Assembly (NCBI GenBank): GCA_013289165.1
Contig: JABDAL010000007.1
Location: 1 to 56,028 of the forward strand
Direction: 5' to 3'
From: Bacteroidota bacterium
GTDB lineage: Bacteria; Bacteroidota; Bacteroidia; JABEUT01
DNA: 56,028 bases
Positions within the stretch are counted from its first letter, which is position 1. The number at the start of each line of letters is the position of its first letter. Position numbers and translations under genes: made by a program. The notes under the pieces were generated by a model that made no database searches, had not been told where the DNA came from, and saw only the letters and a list, made by a program, of their open reading frames with translations. Below are positions 32,892 through 44,388 of this stretch, piece after piece.

Positions 32892-33929
32892 ATGCTGAGT
32901 GAAACGAAATCCCGCGAAACTGCTGGGGCTAAGAGGCATGACTTTTATTATACCGAAGAAAAAGATCTTCATTTCATTCGTCCTATCGAAATAATAAAAG
33001 AACACCCTGAAATAAGGGAATATATGGGTAAAAATCCCTATACCTTTATTGCTGTTACCGCACTGGTTTCCTTGCAAATTGGCATAGCTATTGCAATTAA
33101 GCAATTTAGCATTCCCTGGTGGGGAGCATTGATTGCAGCCTATGTGTTGGGTGCTTTTCTCGTTCATGCATTGTTTGTAATGGTTCATGAGTGTTCCCAT
33201 AACCTTCTTTTTAAGAGAAAACAGCTAAATACCCTGGCCGGGATATTTGCTAATTCTGCTATGTTTTTTCCAAGCTCTGTCTCCTTTCAACGGTATCATT
33301 TGAAACATCATGCGCACCAGGGCATTCATGAGCTGGATGCCGATTTGCCATCGTTCGGAGAAGCTGAATTTGCCAATAATACTTTTTTGGGAAAAGCCAT
33401 CTGGTTACTGCTCTATCCTATTATGCAAACATTGCGCTTGCCACGCATGAAAGAAGTAAAGCATGTTGACAAGTGGGTATTATTAAATTTTGTGGTTGTA
33501 GTTGGGGTAGATGTGGCGGTTTGGTTTGTACTGGGTCCTGCCGCATTTTTATATATGTGTGCTTCTCTTTTCTTTTCAGTTGGTTTGCATCCGCTTGGGG
33601 CTCGCTGGGTACAGGAACACTATCTCACTACAGATGATATACAAGAAACCCACAGTTATTATGGCCCGTTGAATATAGTGGCCTTTAATGTAGGGCATCA
33701 TAATGAACACCATGATTTCCCTTCTGTTCCCTGGAACAGACTTCCTAAGGTGCGCAAAGCAGGGGAAAAATGGTATAATAATATAGCGTACCATAATTCC
33801 TGGACATTGCTTTGGCTGCGTTTTTTATTCGATAAAAATATTTCTGTCTATTCCCGTATGCTCAGAAAGAAAAAAGAGCCCAAGGTTTCATCCGTCAATA
33901 AGCGGGTTCCTCAAGTTGAAAGTGTATAA
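32892..33929 (+). CDS. sphingolipid delta-4 (dihydroceramide) desaturase-like membrane di-iron enzyme
   Basis: 345 residues with four or more membrane spans and three His boxes: HECSH (99-103), HLKHH (136-140) and HNEHH (270-274). What sets it apart from ordinary fatty acid desaturases is the resemblance to animal DEGS1. The N-terminus DFYYTEEKDLHFIRP with HPEIREYMG corresponds to the Lipid_DES domain of DEGS1 (from memory DFEWVYTDQPH...YPEIK.LM), and ETHSYYGPLNIVAFNVG plus the third box and HNSW/YSRM are nearly the DEGS1 sequence. The predicted reaction is insertion of a delta-4 double bond, or hydroxylation, in dihydroceramide. It is 20 bases upstream of gpsA. The call is strong for subfamily, inferential for substrate. 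Confidence 0.85.
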   Translation: MLSETKSRETAGAKRHDFYYTEEKDLHFIRPIEIIKEHPEIREYMGKNPYTFIAVTALVSLQIGIAIAIKQFSIPWWGALIAAYVLGAFLVHALFVMVHECSHNLLFKRKQLNTLAGIFANSAMFFPSSVSFQRYHLKHHAHQGIHELDADLPSFGEAEFANNTFLGKAIWLLLYPIMQTLRLPRMKEVKHVDKWVLLNFVVVVGVDVAVWFVLGPAAFLYMCASLFFSVGLHPLGARWVQEHYLTTDDIQETHSYYGPLNIVAFNVGHHNEHHDFPSVPWNRLPKVRKAGEKWYNNIAYHNSWTLLWLRFLFDKNISVYSRMLRKKKEPKVSSVNKRVPQVESV

Positions 33930-33949: not shown

Positions 33950-34948
33950 ATGTCGCAAGGAAGAATTAGTATACTGGGTGCAGGGAGCTGGGCTACTGCT
34001 ATGGTAAAAATTCTTTCGAACAACGCGTCTCATCTAAACTGGTGGGTGAGGAAACAGGAGAATATTGACTACATTAAAAAATACAGGCATAATCCGAATT
34101 ACTTGGGTGACATAGAGCTGCCGGTTGAGAAGACTACTTTCTACCCAAATTTGAAAGAGGCAATTGCTAATTCTGATATACTGCTTATAGCGGTTCCTTC
34201 TGCATTTATAAGTGAAGCATTCAAAGGATTATCTAAAGATGATTTTAAGGGAAAAATGATATTCTCTCTTATAAAGGGTACTTTGCCCGACAAGAAAATA
34301 ATGGTGAGCGAATATTTTCATAGGCATTTTGATGTGTCATTAAATGCCTTCGGCATGATTGCCGGACCATGCCACGCAGAAGAAGTCGCATTAGAAAAGC
34401 TTTCTTATCTCACTGTTGCCTGTTCTGAACAATCGGAAGCGCAAAAGATGGCAAGCCTGCTGAATTGCCGCTATATCAAAGCCTGCACATCCAACGATAT
34501 GCAAGGCATAGAATACACCGCCGCCCTGAAAAATATTTATGCTGTTGCAAGTGGAATCTGCCATGGATTAGGTGGCTATGGCGATAATTTCCAGGCGGTG
34601 CTGGTGGCCAATGCGATACAAGAAATCCGCCGCTTCATTGATGTGGCCTATCCTACACTCAGGGATACTAATCTTTCTGCTTACTTGGGAGACCTTTTGG
34701 TAACAGCCTATTCTCAATTCAGCCGGAACCGTATGCTCGGAAGTATGATTGGCAAAGGCTATTCAGTGAAATATGCACAGATGGAAATGAATATGGTTGC
34801 GGAAGGATATTACGCCGTAAAAACCATCTATACCCTTAACCAGGACTATAAAGTGGAAATGCCGATATGCGATGCTGTGTATCGCATTCTCTATGAAAAA
34901 ATGTCCCCTTCGGTAGAAATTCGTTTACTCTCTGAAAAACTTGCATGA
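33950..34948 (+). CDS. gpsA: NAD(P)-dependent glycerol-3-phosphate dehydrogenase
   Basis: Makes sn-glycerol-3-phosphate for phospholipids from dihydroxyacetone phosphate. 332 residues: Rossmann ILGAGSWATAM, SLIKGTLPDKK, IAGPCHAEEVA (usually GPSxAxE), the catalytic Lys in EYTAALKNIYAVASGI, and GLGGYGDNFQAVL. It sits 20 bases downstream of the desaturase and overlaps the methyltransferase start by 4 bases (ATGA), making a three-gene unit with at least two lipid enzymes. Confidence 0.95.
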   Translation: MSQGRISILGAGSWATAMVKILSNNASHLNWWVRKQENIDYIKKYRHNPNYLGDIELPVEKTTFYPNLKEAIANSDILLIAVPSAFISEAFKGLSKDDFKGKMIFSLIKGTLPDKKIMVSEYFHRHFDVSLNAFGMIAGPCHAEEVALEKLSYLTVACSEQSEAQKMASLLNCRYIKACTSNDMQGIEYTAALKNIYAVASGICHGLGGYGDNFQAVLVANAIQEIRRFIDVAYPTLRDTNLSAYLGDLLVTAYSQFSRNRMLGSMIGKGYSVKYAQMEMNMVAEGYYAVKTIYTLNQDYKVEMPICDAVYRILYEKMSPSVEIRLLSEKLA

Positions 34949-35865
34949 TGGGTATTGAGCACTGCCGGGATATGGAAAACCTGACAAGCTGCCCTATTTG
35001 TCAATCTTCTGAACTTAAGCCATTTCTTGAGTGTACCGATTATACCGTTAGCAAAAGTGACTTCAATATTGTGCAATGTGCTTCCTGCGGGTTTCATTTC
35101 ACCAATCCCCGCCCCAGGGAAGCAGAATGCGGGAAGTATTACCAAAGCGAAGATTATATTTCTCATTCCGATACACGCAAGGGGCTCATCAATAATCTCT
35201 ATCATTATGCACGTAAGTTTACCTTAAAGAAAAAACTAAAACTAGTAGCTTCTGTCACAGAAAAACAGCAAGGCAATATATTGGACTTAGGTTGCGGAAC
35301 AGGAGCATTTTTAAATACATGTAAAGAATCAGGCTGGAAAGTGCAGGGAATAGAGCCTTCTGCCGATGCCCGCGAATTTGCACACAAAAATTATGCGCTC
35401 GATTTATACGATGTAAACTCCTGGGAAAAGTTTCCTGATAATTCCCTGGGTGTAGTTACCGCGTGGCACGTGTTGGAGCATGTATATAAATTAGAAGATG
35501 AAGCAAAACAAGTTAAAAGAGCGCTATCAAATAATGGCACTTTTATAGTTGCTTTGCCAAATTGCAGTTCTGCCGATGCCCGCTTCTATGGCCGCTATTG
35601 GGCAGCCTATGATGTACCCCGCCACATATGGCATTTCACACCTGCTGATGTAAAACGCTTTTTTGAAAACCAGGGTTTCAAACTCGAATCTGTTTTGCCT
35701 ATGCCTTGGGATGCCTATTATATCTGTATGTTAAGTGAAAAATATAAAGGGGGAAATGTGAACTATGGCAGGGCCATGATACATGGGTGGTTCTCCAATA
35801 TCAATGCCAAAAAAGAAGGAAATACCTGGAGCAGCCAGATATATATTCTGAAGCCTGATAAGTAA
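34945..35865 (+). CDS. class I SAM-dependent methyltransferase with N-terminal zinc ribbon
   Basis: 306 residues. An N-terminal four-Cys zinc ribbon (Cys16/Cys19 in SCPICQ, Cys45/Cys48 in CASCGFHF) is followed by a Methyltransf_23-type Rossmann fold: NILDLGCGTGAFLN, VQGIEPS, TAWHVLEHV, ALPNCSS and the DVPRHIWHFTP motif typical of this group. Such proteins often act in polysaccharide or lipid modification; the substrate is unknown. The start at 34945 overlaps gpsA by 4 bases; an internal ATG at 34972 (MENLTSCPIC) would also work. Confidence 0.88.
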   Translation: MMGIEHCRDMENLTSCPICQSSELKPFLECTDYTVSKSDFNIVQCASCGFHFTNPRPREAECGKYYQSEDYISHSDTRKGLINNLYHYARKFTLKKKLKLVASVTEKQQGNILDLGCGTGAFLNTCKESGWKVQGIEPSADAREFAHKNYALDLYDVNSWEKFPDNSLGVVTAWHVLEHVYKLEDEAKQVKRALSNNGTFIVALPNCSSADARFYGRYWAAYDVPRHIWHFTPADVKRFFENQGFKLESVLPMPWDAYYICMLSEKYKGGNVNYGRAMIHGWFSNINAKKEGNTWSSQIYILKPDK

Positions 35866-35902: not shown

Positions 35903-36634
35903 ATGGCTTTAACTATTGGTATTACAAATTGCAATGAATGGGTCAACTACGAACGCTGGGTTAAAAGTGCAGATAAAGACATATCCATAGTTAAACTGGA
36001 AGCAGGTAAGGGAGAGGATAGCTTTGTAAGCCATTGCGATGGAATTATACTCACGGGCGGTGAAGATGTAGACCCCGCTTTGTATGGCAAGCCGGAATAT
36101 GCAGAACAATACAAACTGGAAAAGTTAAATCCGGAAAGAAACAAGTTTGAATTTGATATCTTAAAAGAAACGGAAGAATATAAAATTCCTGTGTTGGGTA
36201 TATGTAGAGGCTTGCAATTAGCTAATGTATATTTTAAAGGTACTTTAATCCCTGATTTGCCAAGCATAGAAAAGGCAAGCCATTCCGCCGGGCCAAAGCA
36301 GGATTCCGTTCACCGGGTTAGCTTGGAAAGAAATAGCAGGCTGGGTAAAATTATAGGACAATCTGAAGGAGAAATAAATTCTCACCACCACCAGGCTGCA
36401 GATGAAATTGGCAATGGCTTGGTTGTTACTGCTCGTTCAGAAGATGGAGTAGCAGAAGGCCTGGAGAAGAATAAAAAACACGATGCAGAATTTTTCCTCT
36501 TGGTTCAATGGCACCCGGAACGAATGGATGTAAATAATCCTTTCTCAGGGAAATTGAGAGATGCATTTCTAAAAGCCTGCAGCGAGTATAACCGGTATTC
36601 TAATCTTACGCAATCCTTAAGCGTAGCGCCGTAA
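35903..36634 (+). CDS. class I glutamine amidotransferase-like (peptidase C26 / PuuD type) hydrolase
   Basis: 243 residues. Nucleophile Cys101 in VLGICRGLQLANV; His204 and Glu206 in VQWHPERMD complete the triad. LTGGEDVDPALYG and INSHHHQAADEIG are typical of gamma-glutamyl-GABA hydrolase PuuD and relatives. It likely hydrolyses a gamma-glutamyl amide. No putrescine pathway genes are near. Convergent with aspS, 3 bases apart. Confidence 0.88.
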   Translation: MALTIGITNCNEWVNYERWVKSADKDISIVKLEAGKGEDSFVSHCDGIILTGGEDVDPALYGKPEYAEQYKLEKLNPERNKFEFDILKETEEYKIPVLGICRGLQLANVYFKGTLIPDLPSIEKASHSAGPKQDSVHRVSLERNSRLGKIIGQSEGEINSHHHQAADEIGNGLVVTARSEDGVAEGLEKNKKHDAEFFLLVQWHPERMDVNNPFSGKLRDAFLKACSEYNRYSNLTQSLSVAP

Positions 36635-42750: not shown

Positions 42751-43542
42751 TTACTTTTCAGGAGAATAAAGTCCTTTAGCAACTCCTTCAACCATATTCT
42801 TAGGGAGTAAGCGGCTTGAAAAAGCCCCTACTTTATTGGCTAATCCTGGAATAACCTCTGTCTTGCCTTGCAGCATAGCTTTTATTCCAAACTCAGCTAC
42901 CACGTCAGCCTGCATATTAAACTTGTCAGCCTGCTTTACAATCTTCTGCACCTTGCTCATACCCGCTCTTTCCATAAAATGGGTTTCTACCGTGCCTGGG
43001 CTAAGGCAGGTTACAGATACATTGCTTCCCTTCAATTCTTGCTTCAAAGCCCTCGTAAATGAAAGTACAAAAGATTTGGTAGCAGAATAAACTGCCAGGT
43101 AAGGAACAGCCTGGTAAGCTGCCGTGCTGGCTATATTCATAATATAACTTTTGCCGGAATATTTTTGAAGAATGGGTAATATCATATAAGTTAATTGAAC
43201 ACCCGCATTCATATTCAGCGCCATCATATTAAGCTGCTCTTCCAACGATAATTTTTCAAAAGCTCCATGCAATCCGTAGCCTGCATTATTTATAAGCACA
43301 TTAATGTCATAGCCTCCCTTGTTACACCATCCTACTATCTCTTTAGCCGCATCGGGAGAGGATAGGTCAATGGCTTTATAATAAACAGAGCCTCCGTATT
43401 TTTTTTGTAATTCTTTCGAAAGCTCCGCGAGTAGATTTTCGCTACGTGCTATCAATAATAAATTGTACTTGCGCTTAGCCAGGCTAATGGCCAATTCCTT
43501 ACCTATACCCTTGCTTGCCCCTGTTATTAATGCGTATGGCAT
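42751..43542 (-). CDS. classical short-chain dehydrogenase/reductase
   Basis: 263 residues. Cofactor motif TGASKGIG (7-14) with Arg33 nearby, suggesting NADP; NNAGYG (85-90); catalytic Ser139, Tyr152 and Lys156 (YSATKSF); PGTVETHF. The C-terminus (VIPGLANKVGAFSSRLLP) is typical of the DltE/SadH-like SDR group. The substrate is unknown. It follows the phytanoyl-CoA-dioxygenase-like gene by 6 bases, so an oxygenase-reductase pair acting on one pathway is possible but unproven. Confidence 0.9.
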   Translation of the reverse strand: MPYALITGASKGIGKELAISLAKRKYNLLLIARSENLLAELSKELQKKYGGSVYYKAIDLSSPDAAKEIVGWCNKGGYDINVLINNAGYGLHGAFEKLSLEEQLNMMALNMNAGVQLTYMILPILQKYSGKSYIMNIASTAAYQAVPYLAVYSATKSFVLSFTRALKQELKGSNVSVTCLSPGTVETHFMERAGMSKVQKIVKQADKFNMQADVVAEFGIKAMLQGKTEVIPGLANKVGAFSSRLLPKNMVEGVAKGLYSPEK

Positions 43543-43548
43543 AACAAT

Positions 43549-44388
43549 TTATTCATCAAACTTGGCAAATGCCTGCAAATGGTGATAAATAGGGGTTTTC
43601 TTTTTGTTGGTGGTAGCCTTTGGTTTGTGCTTAGGGCCGCATAATACAGGTATATACATTATCCGGCGGCGGCTCACTCCGTCCTTATGTTCGGAATGCC
43701 CAACCCGGTGCCACATATGCCCGTGGTGCACTACTACGTCTCCGGCAGTTGCTTCTACCAATACTTCATTCTTATCTTCTTTCGTATTCCGGTAATACAT
43801 CTTGGTAAAGAGCATACCAAATAAGCCTTGCCTATGGGTTCCGGGTAGTATACGCAAACCACCATTTATGGCAGAGGAATTATCTAAATAAATACCTATG
43901 TTCAGGGTTTCATAAACTTTTTTGCCATAAAATACTTCACGCAGAGAGTCTGTATGCCAACCCATTTGTTTAAAACGGCTGTGCTTGGAATTTACATAGT
44001 GGTTAAATACCACCCCGTCGCGTTCGTCTTCTGCTACGCGGGCAGTTTTTTGGTGAAGTAATTGTCTAAACCCTTGTATGCGGGGGTCTATTGCCATTTT
44101 ATGGATACGCTCGCTCCATTGTGAAGTATAAGGGAAGCGCTGAACGATTCTCTTACCGTTTTCGTCGTGTCCAAAAATTACGGGTATACCGTTTACTACT
44201 TTGTCTTTTGAGGCAATCAGCTTAGCTTGTGCATCCTCATAGCCCAGTATAAATTCCTTTACCTCTTCAGGGGAGAAAACACCGGTAAAATGCACAAAGC
44301 CGTATTTAGTAAAAAAATCGAGTTGCTCCTTAGTAATAGTATCTCCAAGTGTAAACCTGGGATAGTTTTTTAAAGATGCTTTATCCAT
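43549..44388 (-). CDS. phytanoyl-CoA dioxygenase (PhyH) family Fe(II)/2-oxoglutarate oxygenase
   Basis: 279 residues. The facial triad is His145-x-Asp147 (GWHTDSL) with a distal His in VHHGHMWHRVG (221-227, most likely His222 or His227). An Arg in RRRIMYIPV would bind 2-oxoglutarate. PGTHRQGLFG is a PhyH feature. It likely hydroxylates a lipid or another small molecule. First gene of a two-gene unit with the SDR. -7 box TATTTTTG on the minus strand at 44422-44429. The gap 44389-44619 shows nothing further. Confidence 0.87.
   Translation of the reverse strand: MDKASLKNYPRFTLGDTITKEQLDFFTKYGFVHFTGVFSPEEVKEFILGYEDAQAKLIASKDKVVNGIPVIFGHDENGKRIVQRFPYTSQWSERIHKMAIDPRIQGFRQLLHQKTARVAEDERDGVVFNHYVNSKHSRFKQMGWHTDSLREVFYGKKVYETLNIGIYLDNSSAINGGLRILPGTHRQGLFGMLFTKMYYRNTKEDKNEVLVEATAGDVVVHHGHMWHRVGHSEHKDGVSRRRIMYIPVLCGPKHKPKATTNKKKTPIYHHLQAFAKFDE

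What the first reader, a model, noticed from the sequence alone, without database searches (positions are those of the whole stretch)
32892..33929. Bacterial enzyme closely resembling the eukaryotic sphingolipid delta-4 (dihydroceramide) desaturase
Beyond the three His boxes found in all membrane desaturases, this protein has the Lipid_DES-like N-terminus (DFYYTEEKDLHFIRP, HPEIREYMG) and a long stretch around box 3 (ETHSYYGPLNIVAFNVG, NEHHDFP, HNSW, YSRM) that I recall almost verbatim from animal DEGS1. Bacteroidota make saturated dihydroceramides through a bacterial serine palmitoyltransferase, so a delta-4 desaturase would let the organism make true ceramide-type lipids. It is co-directional with gpsA and a methyltransferase, a plausible lipid unit. 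The subfamily resemblance is seen; the activity is inferred.
Basis: partly seen in the sequence, partly recalled or inferred. Interest (0 to 1): 0.78.

Follow-up and report, generated by a model that had tools for sequence, protein, structure and literature searches.

The report
Ceramide-type desaturase in sulfonolipid-making bacterium
A bacterium carries a cousin of the animal enzyme that turns dihydroceramide into ceramide, but its genome seems to build sulfur-headed look-alikes of sphingolipids instead, so the enzyme probably puts its double bond into those.

Summary
The gene is real and intact: 345 aa with FA_desaturase (103 bits) and the DES-specific domain PF08557 (33.5 bits, cut-off 23). 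PF08557 is over cut-off in 11 of 11 genomes of its order, own included, one genus. The protein falls in a DES clade apart from other PF00487 desaturases (96/96; 93/93).

The metabolic story changes. The own genome's only long-chain-base-type condensing enzyme found is not serine palmitoyltransferase (SPT) but a cysteate fatty acyltransferase (CFAT/SulA), first enzyme of sulfonolipid (capnine) synthesis: 613 and 585 bits to 7u7h and 28eh, 258 to the best solved SPT, with the SulA-diagnostic lysine. In the genus CFAT is in 8 of 11 genomes, SPT in 1 of 11; in the three at least 96% complete, CFAT 3 of 3, SPT 0 of 3.

Best reading: a delta-4-type desaturase acting on N-acyl-capnine (0.5). Against it: 17 of 40 desaturase-bearing genomes of a phylum sample have no CFAT match and score as SPT-like, and in the class the gene goes with SPT more than with CFAT. 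Hydroxylase activity is not excluded. No activity was shown.

The parts
32892..33929 (+). DES-family (sphingolipid delta-4-desaturase-like) membrane desaturase, 345 aa
   Evidence: ORF; PF00487 and PF08557 over cut-off; trees
32931..33041 (+). PF08557 Lipid_DES N-terminal domain (residues 14-50)
33186..33200 (+). His box 1, HECSH (residues 99-103)
   Evidence: translation; H99 and H103 invariant
33297..33311 (+). His box 2, HLKHH (residues 136-140)
   Evidence: translation; H136, H139, H140 invariant
33699..33713 (+). His box 3, HNEHH (residues 270-274)
   Evidence: translation; H270, N271, E272, H273, H274 invariant
33950..34948 (+). gpsA-like NAD(P)-dependent glycerol-3-phosphate dehydrogenase, 20 bp downstream; follows the desaturase in 11 of 11 genus loci; link to the desaturase's function not shown
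34945..35865 (+). class I SAM methyltransferase (Methyltransf_23), overlaps gpsA by 4 bp; in 11 of 11 genus loci; link to function not shown
35903..36634 (+). Peptidase C26 / class I glutamine amidotransferase, co-directional (one cluster of it in 6 of 11 genus loci); probably not part of the lipid function

Best explanation
The gene encodes an integral-membrane di-iron desaturase of the DES (dihydroceramide delta-4-desaturase) family. It most likely removes two hydrogens at C4-C5 of an N-acylated long-chain amino-alcohol. In this organism the base is most likely capnine, made by a cysteate fatty acyltransferase (CFAT/SulA), then reduced and N-acylated, so the product would be a delta-4-unsaturated sulfonolipid, a sulfonate analogue of ceramide. 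Shown: DES-family membership by sequence, intact His boxes, CFAT in the same genome, no SPT found in the near-complete congeners. Inferred: desaturation rather than hydroxylation, the C4-C5 position, the sulfonolipid substrate, the di-iron centre and the electron donor.
For: PF08557 and PF00487 over cut-off. DES clade separate from the other PF00487 proteins taken from six genomes. His-box histidines invariant in 30 sequences, own included. Alpha-oxoamine synthases (AOS) of the own genome, four matches to TIGR01825: C84 is Kbl (TIGR01822, 686 bits, cut-off 493); C3 is BioF-like (354 bits, cut-off 426; a bioD-like gene beside it, by eye); C8 is in an 820-aa protein, 161 bits on the SPT model; C61 (L038:2518-3762) has 316 bits on the SPT model (cut-off 640) but 613 bits to 7u7h and 585 to 28eh (named cysteate-C-fatty acyltransferase), against 258 for the best solved SPT. 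C61 has the Lys that separates SulA from Spt (PMC9304779 abstract and passages; alignment). In one search that place is Lys in 18 of 18 CFAT rows (at least 50% identical to C61) and Ala in 14 of 14 SPT-like rows (at least 45% identical to the G109 SPT). Genus: CFAT 8 of 11 (the other three are 60-68% complete), SPT over cut-off 1 of 11; G008-G010 (96-99% complete) CFAT 3 of 3, SPT 0 of 3. Seven class genomes from seven genera, own included, six of them 99-100% complete, carry DES and CFAT with no NF047600 match above 360 bits. Among SPT-positive class genomes DES goes with CFAT: 8 of 10 against 0 of 7, p 0.002, kinship ignored. A homologue of the GNAT that sits beside SPT (ceramide synthase is my recalled label) is in 10 of 11 genus genomes, own at 29% identity.
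Against: DES is not tied to sulfonolipids: 17 of 40 DES genomes of the phylum sample have no CFAT match (E 1e-85) and do match the SPT model at 1e-120 (four of the 17 inspected), and seven more distant DES-bearing genomes have an SPT-like (4) or Cys-type (3) AOS. Within the class DES is not significantly associated with CFAT (15 of 15 DES+, 76 of 83 DES-, p 0.59) but is enriched in SPT+ genomes (8 of 17 against 7 of 81, p 0.0005; within CFAT+ genomes p 3e-6; kinship ignored, five of the eight are one genus). G001, a congener, has SPT over cut-off. The own genome is 70% complete. In 52 stretches around DES only one, G008, holds a CFAT gene, about 9.4 kb away. Cysteate synthase and 3-ketocapnine reductase were not sought. 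An unsaturated capnine in this lineage is not known to me.
Confidence: 0.5

Rival explanations
1. Same chemistry, first reader's substrate: it desaturates dihydroceramide, and the organism makes true ceramides with an SPT missed by the incomplete assembly.
For: DES occurs in genomes that match the SPT model and have no CFAT (17 of 40). DES is enriched in SPT+ class genomes (8 of 17 against 7 of 81). Congener G001 has an over-cut-off SPT and a GNAT 53% identical to the SPT-linked one.
Against: No SPT in the 70% assembly nor in G008, G009 and G010 (96-99% complete), while CFAT is there. Six other near-complete class genomes keep DES with CFAT and without SPT.
Confidence: 0.22
2. It is a hydroxylase rather than a desaturase: it hydroxylates the long-chain base (C4 or near it) or the 2-position of the amide-linked acyl chain of the sulfonolipid.
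For: DEGS2 is listed as a delta-4-desaturase/C4-monooxygenase (PMC13161914 passages). A DesA-family protein, CC_0202, is suggested to hydroxylate the amide-linked acyl residue of Caulobacter sphingolipids (PMC11324152 passage). RIF-1, a natural sulfonolipid, has a 5-hydroxy capnine base and a 2-hydroxy acyl chain (PMC3463246 passage). I had no sequence test that separates the two activities.
Against: The protein is in the DES clade and has PF08557. CC_0202 itself was not compared here; PF08557 matched none of the 14 control genomes, Caulobacter vibrioides among them (the control's name is printed).
Confidence: 0.2
3. It is an ordinary acyl-lipid or acyl-CoA fatty acid desaturase that resembles DES.
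For: Weak matches to CrtW, GntB and a bacterial DesA model in NCBIfam, far below their cut-offs. Membrane desaturases share the His boxes (general knowledge).
Against: Separate DES clade; PF08557 over cut-off; the genome has three other PF00487 proteins that could serve acyl lipids and lie outside the DES clade.
Confidence: 0.05

Closest known systems
Eukaryotic sphingolipid delta-4-desaturase DES1/DEGS1 (PF08557 + PF00487)
   Different: Own protein lies in a genus sub-clade (100/100) apart from the sub-clade that the recalled DEGS1 joins (93/100); the motifs differ (GARW-QEH...PWN against GHFISEH...PG). No SPT was found in the genome, so the substrate is probably different.
Sulfonolipid (capnine/sulfobacin) pathway: cysteate synthase, CFAT/SulA, 3-ketocapnine reductase, N-acylation
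   Same: CFAT orthologue with the diagnostic Lys in the same genome and genus.
   Different: The described four-step route from L-phosphoserine to sulfobacin B (PMC11211663 abstract and passages) names no desaturase in what I saw; this would be an added step.
Caulobacter CC_0202, DesA-family sphingolipid acyl-chain hydroxylase
   Same: Bacterial desaturase/hydroxylase-family protein that modifies a sphingolipid (PMC11324152 passage).
   Different: Suggested to hydroxylate the acyl chain; its sequence was not compared here. PF08557 matched none of the 14 control genomes.

Membership tests
DES family (sphingolipid delta-4-desaturase, PF08557/PF00487) | N-terminal Lipid_DES domain over Pfam's cut-off | tested here: met
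   33.5 bits, cut-off 23; 30 of 30 aligned sequences, own included, match at E 0.001
DES family (sphingolipid delta-4-desaturase, PF08557/PF00487) | three His boxes | tested here: met
   HECSH, HLKHH, HNEHH; histidines invariant in 30 sequences
DES family (sphingolipid delta-4-desaturase, PF08557/PF00487) | groups with DES and not with acyl-lipid desaturases | tested here: met
DES family (sphingolipid delta-4-desaturase, PF08557/PF00487) | introduces a 4E double bond into dihydroceramide | not testable with these tools
   no biochemistry possible
Sphingolipid (ceramide) pathway in this organism | serine palmitoyltransferase in the genome | tested here: not met
   own genome (70% complete): best NF047600 match 335 bits (the Kbl gene), cut-off 640; G008-G010 none over cut-off; G001 one at 665 bits
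Sulfonolipid pathway in this organism | CFAT/SulA orthologue with the Lys281-equivalent | tested here: met
   613 bits to 7u7h; Lys280
Sulfonolipid pathway in this organism | cysteate synthase and 3-ketocapnine reductase | not tested
   no reference sequences to hand
Ordinary acyl-lipid desaturase | nested among other PF00487 desaturases of the same genomes | tested here: not met
Long-chain-base C4-hydroxylase / bifunctional DES2 | hydroxylase activity | not testable with these tools
   no sequence test at hand separates it from desaturase

The most novel reading that the evidence does not exclude
A sulfonolipid delta-4-desaturase: bacteria using the ceramide-type desaturase to make a delta-4-unsaturated capnine, which would be a still closer non-hydrolysable mimic of sphingosine-1-phosphate than saturated capnine, in lineages with no sphingolipids of their own. 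The DES family would then act on either headgroup, depending on which condensing enzyme a lineage kept.
Probability: 0.45. Interest if true: 0.75.

Novelty: new variant of a known kind. Interest (0 to 1): 0.58.

Why it matters
[quoted passage not shown] A DES-family gene in 40 of 395 sampled genomes of the phylum (Bacteroidetes by the record titles) questions that as a generalisation and gives a gene to test. Capnine is described as a non-hydrolysable analogue of sphingosine-1-phosphate (PMC9304779 passage), and a bacterial sulfonolipid triggers multicellular development in choanoflagellates (PMC3463246, title and passages). An enzyme that adds the sphingosine-type double bond would matter for signalling by these lipids. 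Genomes that keep the desaturase with CFAT and without SPT make the substrate question directly testable.

Tried and rejected
PDB sequence search with the desaturase: no hit at E 0.01. Search of viral contigs for DES relatives as eukaryotic-type references: none confirmed. Neighbourhood as evidence of pathway: among 52 stretches around DES only L020 (AOS and GNAT), L041 (CFAT) and the fused AOS of L042 and L043 showed a relevant gene, plus a weak BioF-like match in L111 and a fatty acid hydroxylase in L021; no such gene recurs across genera. Specificity residues: position 134, two residues before the first His of box 2, is Arg in 11 of 14 CFAT-only DES rows and not basic in 17 of 17 SPT-only rows, but the recalled human DEGS1 has Arg there too (by eye) and the groups follow kinship, so I do not use it. 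Promoter and terminator scan: about what shuffles give. Structure prediction: no fold evidence, the machine was full seven times. Literature, within the held open-licence PMC library only: searches listed no paper that I recognised, from titles and abstract starts, as being on a bacterial DES-family desaturase or a sulfonolipid desaturase; several lists were capped. In one search four of six terms, 'capnine desaturase' and 'bacterial dihydroceramide desaturase' among them, occur in none of the nine papers found. Subscription papers are mostly not searched. The structures of RIF-2 and of Salinibacter halocapnine, which I recall as unsaturated, could not be checked (papers not held; passages give no structure).

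Full report
What is there. ORF 32892-33929 (+, 345 aa) matches FA_desaturase PF00487 (103 bits) and, at residues 14-50, the sphingolipid delta-4-desaturase domain PF08557 Lipid_DES (33.5 bits, cut-off 23). No NCBIfam model is reached over its cut-off and no solved structure matches at E 0.01. The window is contig 7 of a 2.2-Mb assembly put at 70% completeness. PF08557 is over cut-off in 11 of 11 genomes of the order (one genus, own genome included) and in 40 of 395 genomes sampled from the phylum; 0 of 14 control genomes match.

Family. In an alignment of 30 sequences, own included, the His-box histidines and QET, S.YYG and HNEHHDF are invariant, and 30 of 30 match both Pfam families. All 33 DES rows form one clade (96/96); the recalled DEGS1 falls inside it, with a bacterial sub-clade of G201, G272, G099, a Saprospiraceae and SW_11 (93/100); the own genus is a separate sub-clade (100/100). 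The program warns that long branches meet. Without the recalled row and three others the DES clade is 93/93, not starred. By BLAST the recalled DEGS1 is 35% identical to the own protein over 322 aa (E 1e-64) and 49% to G201; its best E to any of the other desaturases in the set is 0.006.

Pathway. A TIGR01825 search of the own genome gave four alpha-oxoamine synthases. NCBIfam names C84 Kbl (686 bits, cut-off 493) and C3 BioF-like (354 bits, below its cut-off 426; a bioD-like gene beside it, by eye); C8 is the N-terminal half of an 820-aa protein nearest to PRK07505 (261 bits, cut-off 342) with 161 bits on the Bacteroidota SPT model; C61 (L038:2518-3762) has 316 bits on that SPT model, cut-off 640. 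But C61 has 613 bits to PDB 7u7h and 585 to 28eh, named cysteate-C-fatty acyltransferase, against 258 to the best solved SPT. [quoted passage not shown] The aligned residue in the own enzyme is Lys280. In a wider alignment of 44 rows it is Lys in 18 of 18 CFAT rows (at least 50% identical to C61), Ala in 14 of 14 SPT-like rows (at least 45% identical to the G109 SPT), Asn in the own Kbl and the 4 rows at least 60% identical to it; the other 7 have Ser, Cys or Thr.

Genus. CFAT orthologues (at least 80% identity) are in 8 of 11 genomes; the three without (G002, G003, G004) are 60-68% complete. SPT over cut-off is in 1 of 11, G001; in G008, G009 and G010 (96-99% complete) CFAT is 3 of 3 and SPT 0 of 3. 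A GNAT that sits next to SPT in G109, G263 and G101 ('ceramide synthase' is my recalled label) has a homologue in 10 of 11 genus genomes, at 28-35% identity in most (29% in the own) and at 52-53% in G001 and G008.

Phylum sample. CFAT (own C61 as query, E at most 1e-85) is in 139 of 395 genomes, SPT over cut-off in 17 of 395. Of 98 class genomes DES is in 15, all 15 with CFAT, 8 of them also with SPT; of the 7 with SPT and no CFAT none has DES. Fisher tests, kinship ignored: DES by CFAT p 0.59; DES by SPT p 0.0005; DES by CFAT within SPT+ genomes p 0.002; DES by SPT within CFAT+ genomes p 3e-6; five of the eight DES+SPT+ genomes are one genus. So in the class the gene goes with SPT, or rather with having both pathways, more than with CFAT alone. 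Yet seven class genomes (own included, seven genera) have DES and CFAT without SPT; their best SPT-model score is 358 bits. Outside the class 8 DES genomes have CFAT and 17 do not. All 17 are among the 298 of 395 with an SPT-model match at 1e-120, a threshold that also lets in Bacillus subtilis among the controls. I inspected four of the 17 (G061, G080, G246, G394): each has an SPT-like enzyme with Ala at the diagnostic place and the GNAT next to it. So the family goes with long-chain-base synthesis of either kind, and it is the genome around this copy that points to sulfonolipid.

Mechanism proposed. CFAT condenses cysteate with an acyl chain to 3-ketocapnine; after reduction and N-acylation the base presents the same 2-acylamino-3-hydroxy-alkyl part as dihydroceramide, with a sulfonate where the 1-hydroxyl would be. 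A DES-family enzyme would then remove hydrogens at C4 and C5. Shown: sequence family and co-occurrence. Inferred: substrate, position, and desaturation rather than hydroxylation. A bacterial DesA-family protein is suggested to hydroxylate sphingolipid acyl chains (CC_0202; PMC11324152 passage) and a natural sulfonolipid with a 5-hydroxy base exists (RIF-1; PMC3463246 passage), so a hydroxylase is a live rival.

Surroundings. gpsA starts 20 bp downstream, the methyltransferase overlaps it by 4 bp, a C26 amidotransferase follows. gpsA (same strand, gap -1 to 63 bp) and the methyltransferase follow DES in 11 of 11 genus loci and in none of the other loci compared: a genus-level arrangement and weak functional evidence. 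In G008 the CFAT gene is about 9.4 kb from DES on the same contig. In a Verrucomicrobia contig (L020) DES lies 275 bp before an AOS gene on the same strand, and 7.4 kb from a GNAT that is 40% identical to the SPT-linked one of G109 over 211 aa (E 3e-53).

Literature. A review says that bacteria produce dihydroceramide as distinct from ceramide (PMC10191378 passage). The sulfonolipid route is described as four steps from L-phosphoserine to sulfobacin B (PMC11211663, abstract and passages); what I saw of it mentions a desaturase only for eukaryotic sphingolipids. My ten searches of the held library (listed under Tried and rejected) showed no paper on a bacterial DES-family or sulfonolipid desaturase that I recognised; this covers only open-licence PMC papers.

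Verdict. Real, correctly placed in the DES family, substrate most likely reassigned from dihydroceramide to N-acyl-capnine. A new variant of a known kind.

Noticed in passing
window 42751-43542 (-) and 43549-44388 (-): An SDR whose best NCBIfam match is mycolate reductase (178 bits, cut-off 380) beside a PhyH dioxygenase; a beta-keto reductase of this kind could be a 3-ketocapnine reductase candidate, but SDRs are common (168 models match).
   Followed up: partly
L040:5564-8026 (-) (own genome contig C8): 820-aa protein: N-terminal alpha-oxoamine synthase half (PRK07505-like) and a C-terminal half of about 400 aa with no Pfam match at 1e-4; similar long frames in G002, G005, G009, G010 and G411.
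   Followed up: partly
G189, G229, G264 (L180:2145-5576): CFAT-like matches inside open frames of 1113-1171 aa; the G264 copy keeps the diagnostic Lys. A fused sulfonolipid enzyme is possible, but GC-rich frames can stay open by chance.
   Followed up: no
L020:6060-14986: Verrucomicrobia contig with DES 275 bp before an AOS, and a CDP-alcohol phosphotransferase (PF01066) and an SPT-type GNAT nearby; looks like a lipid cluster.
   Followed up: partly
L209, L210, L213: AOS enzymes of DES-bearing proteobacterial, Bradymonadaceae and Verrucomicrobia records with Cys where SPT has Ala and CFAT has Lys; possibly another substrate class.
   Followed up: no
L021:10982-11650: A PF04116 fatty acid hydroxylase gene about 1.9 kb from a DES relative.
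   Followed up: no
L041:9113-11320: In G008, genes that look by eye like CysN and CysD (sulfate activation) lie between CFAT and DES; not checked with a profile.
   Followed up: no
L096, L097, L098, L023, L024: A second bacterial DES sub-type (GHFISEHY...PG) that is nearer to the recalled eukaryotic DEGS1 than the window's protein; relevant to the origin of the eukaryotic enzyme.
   Followed up: partly
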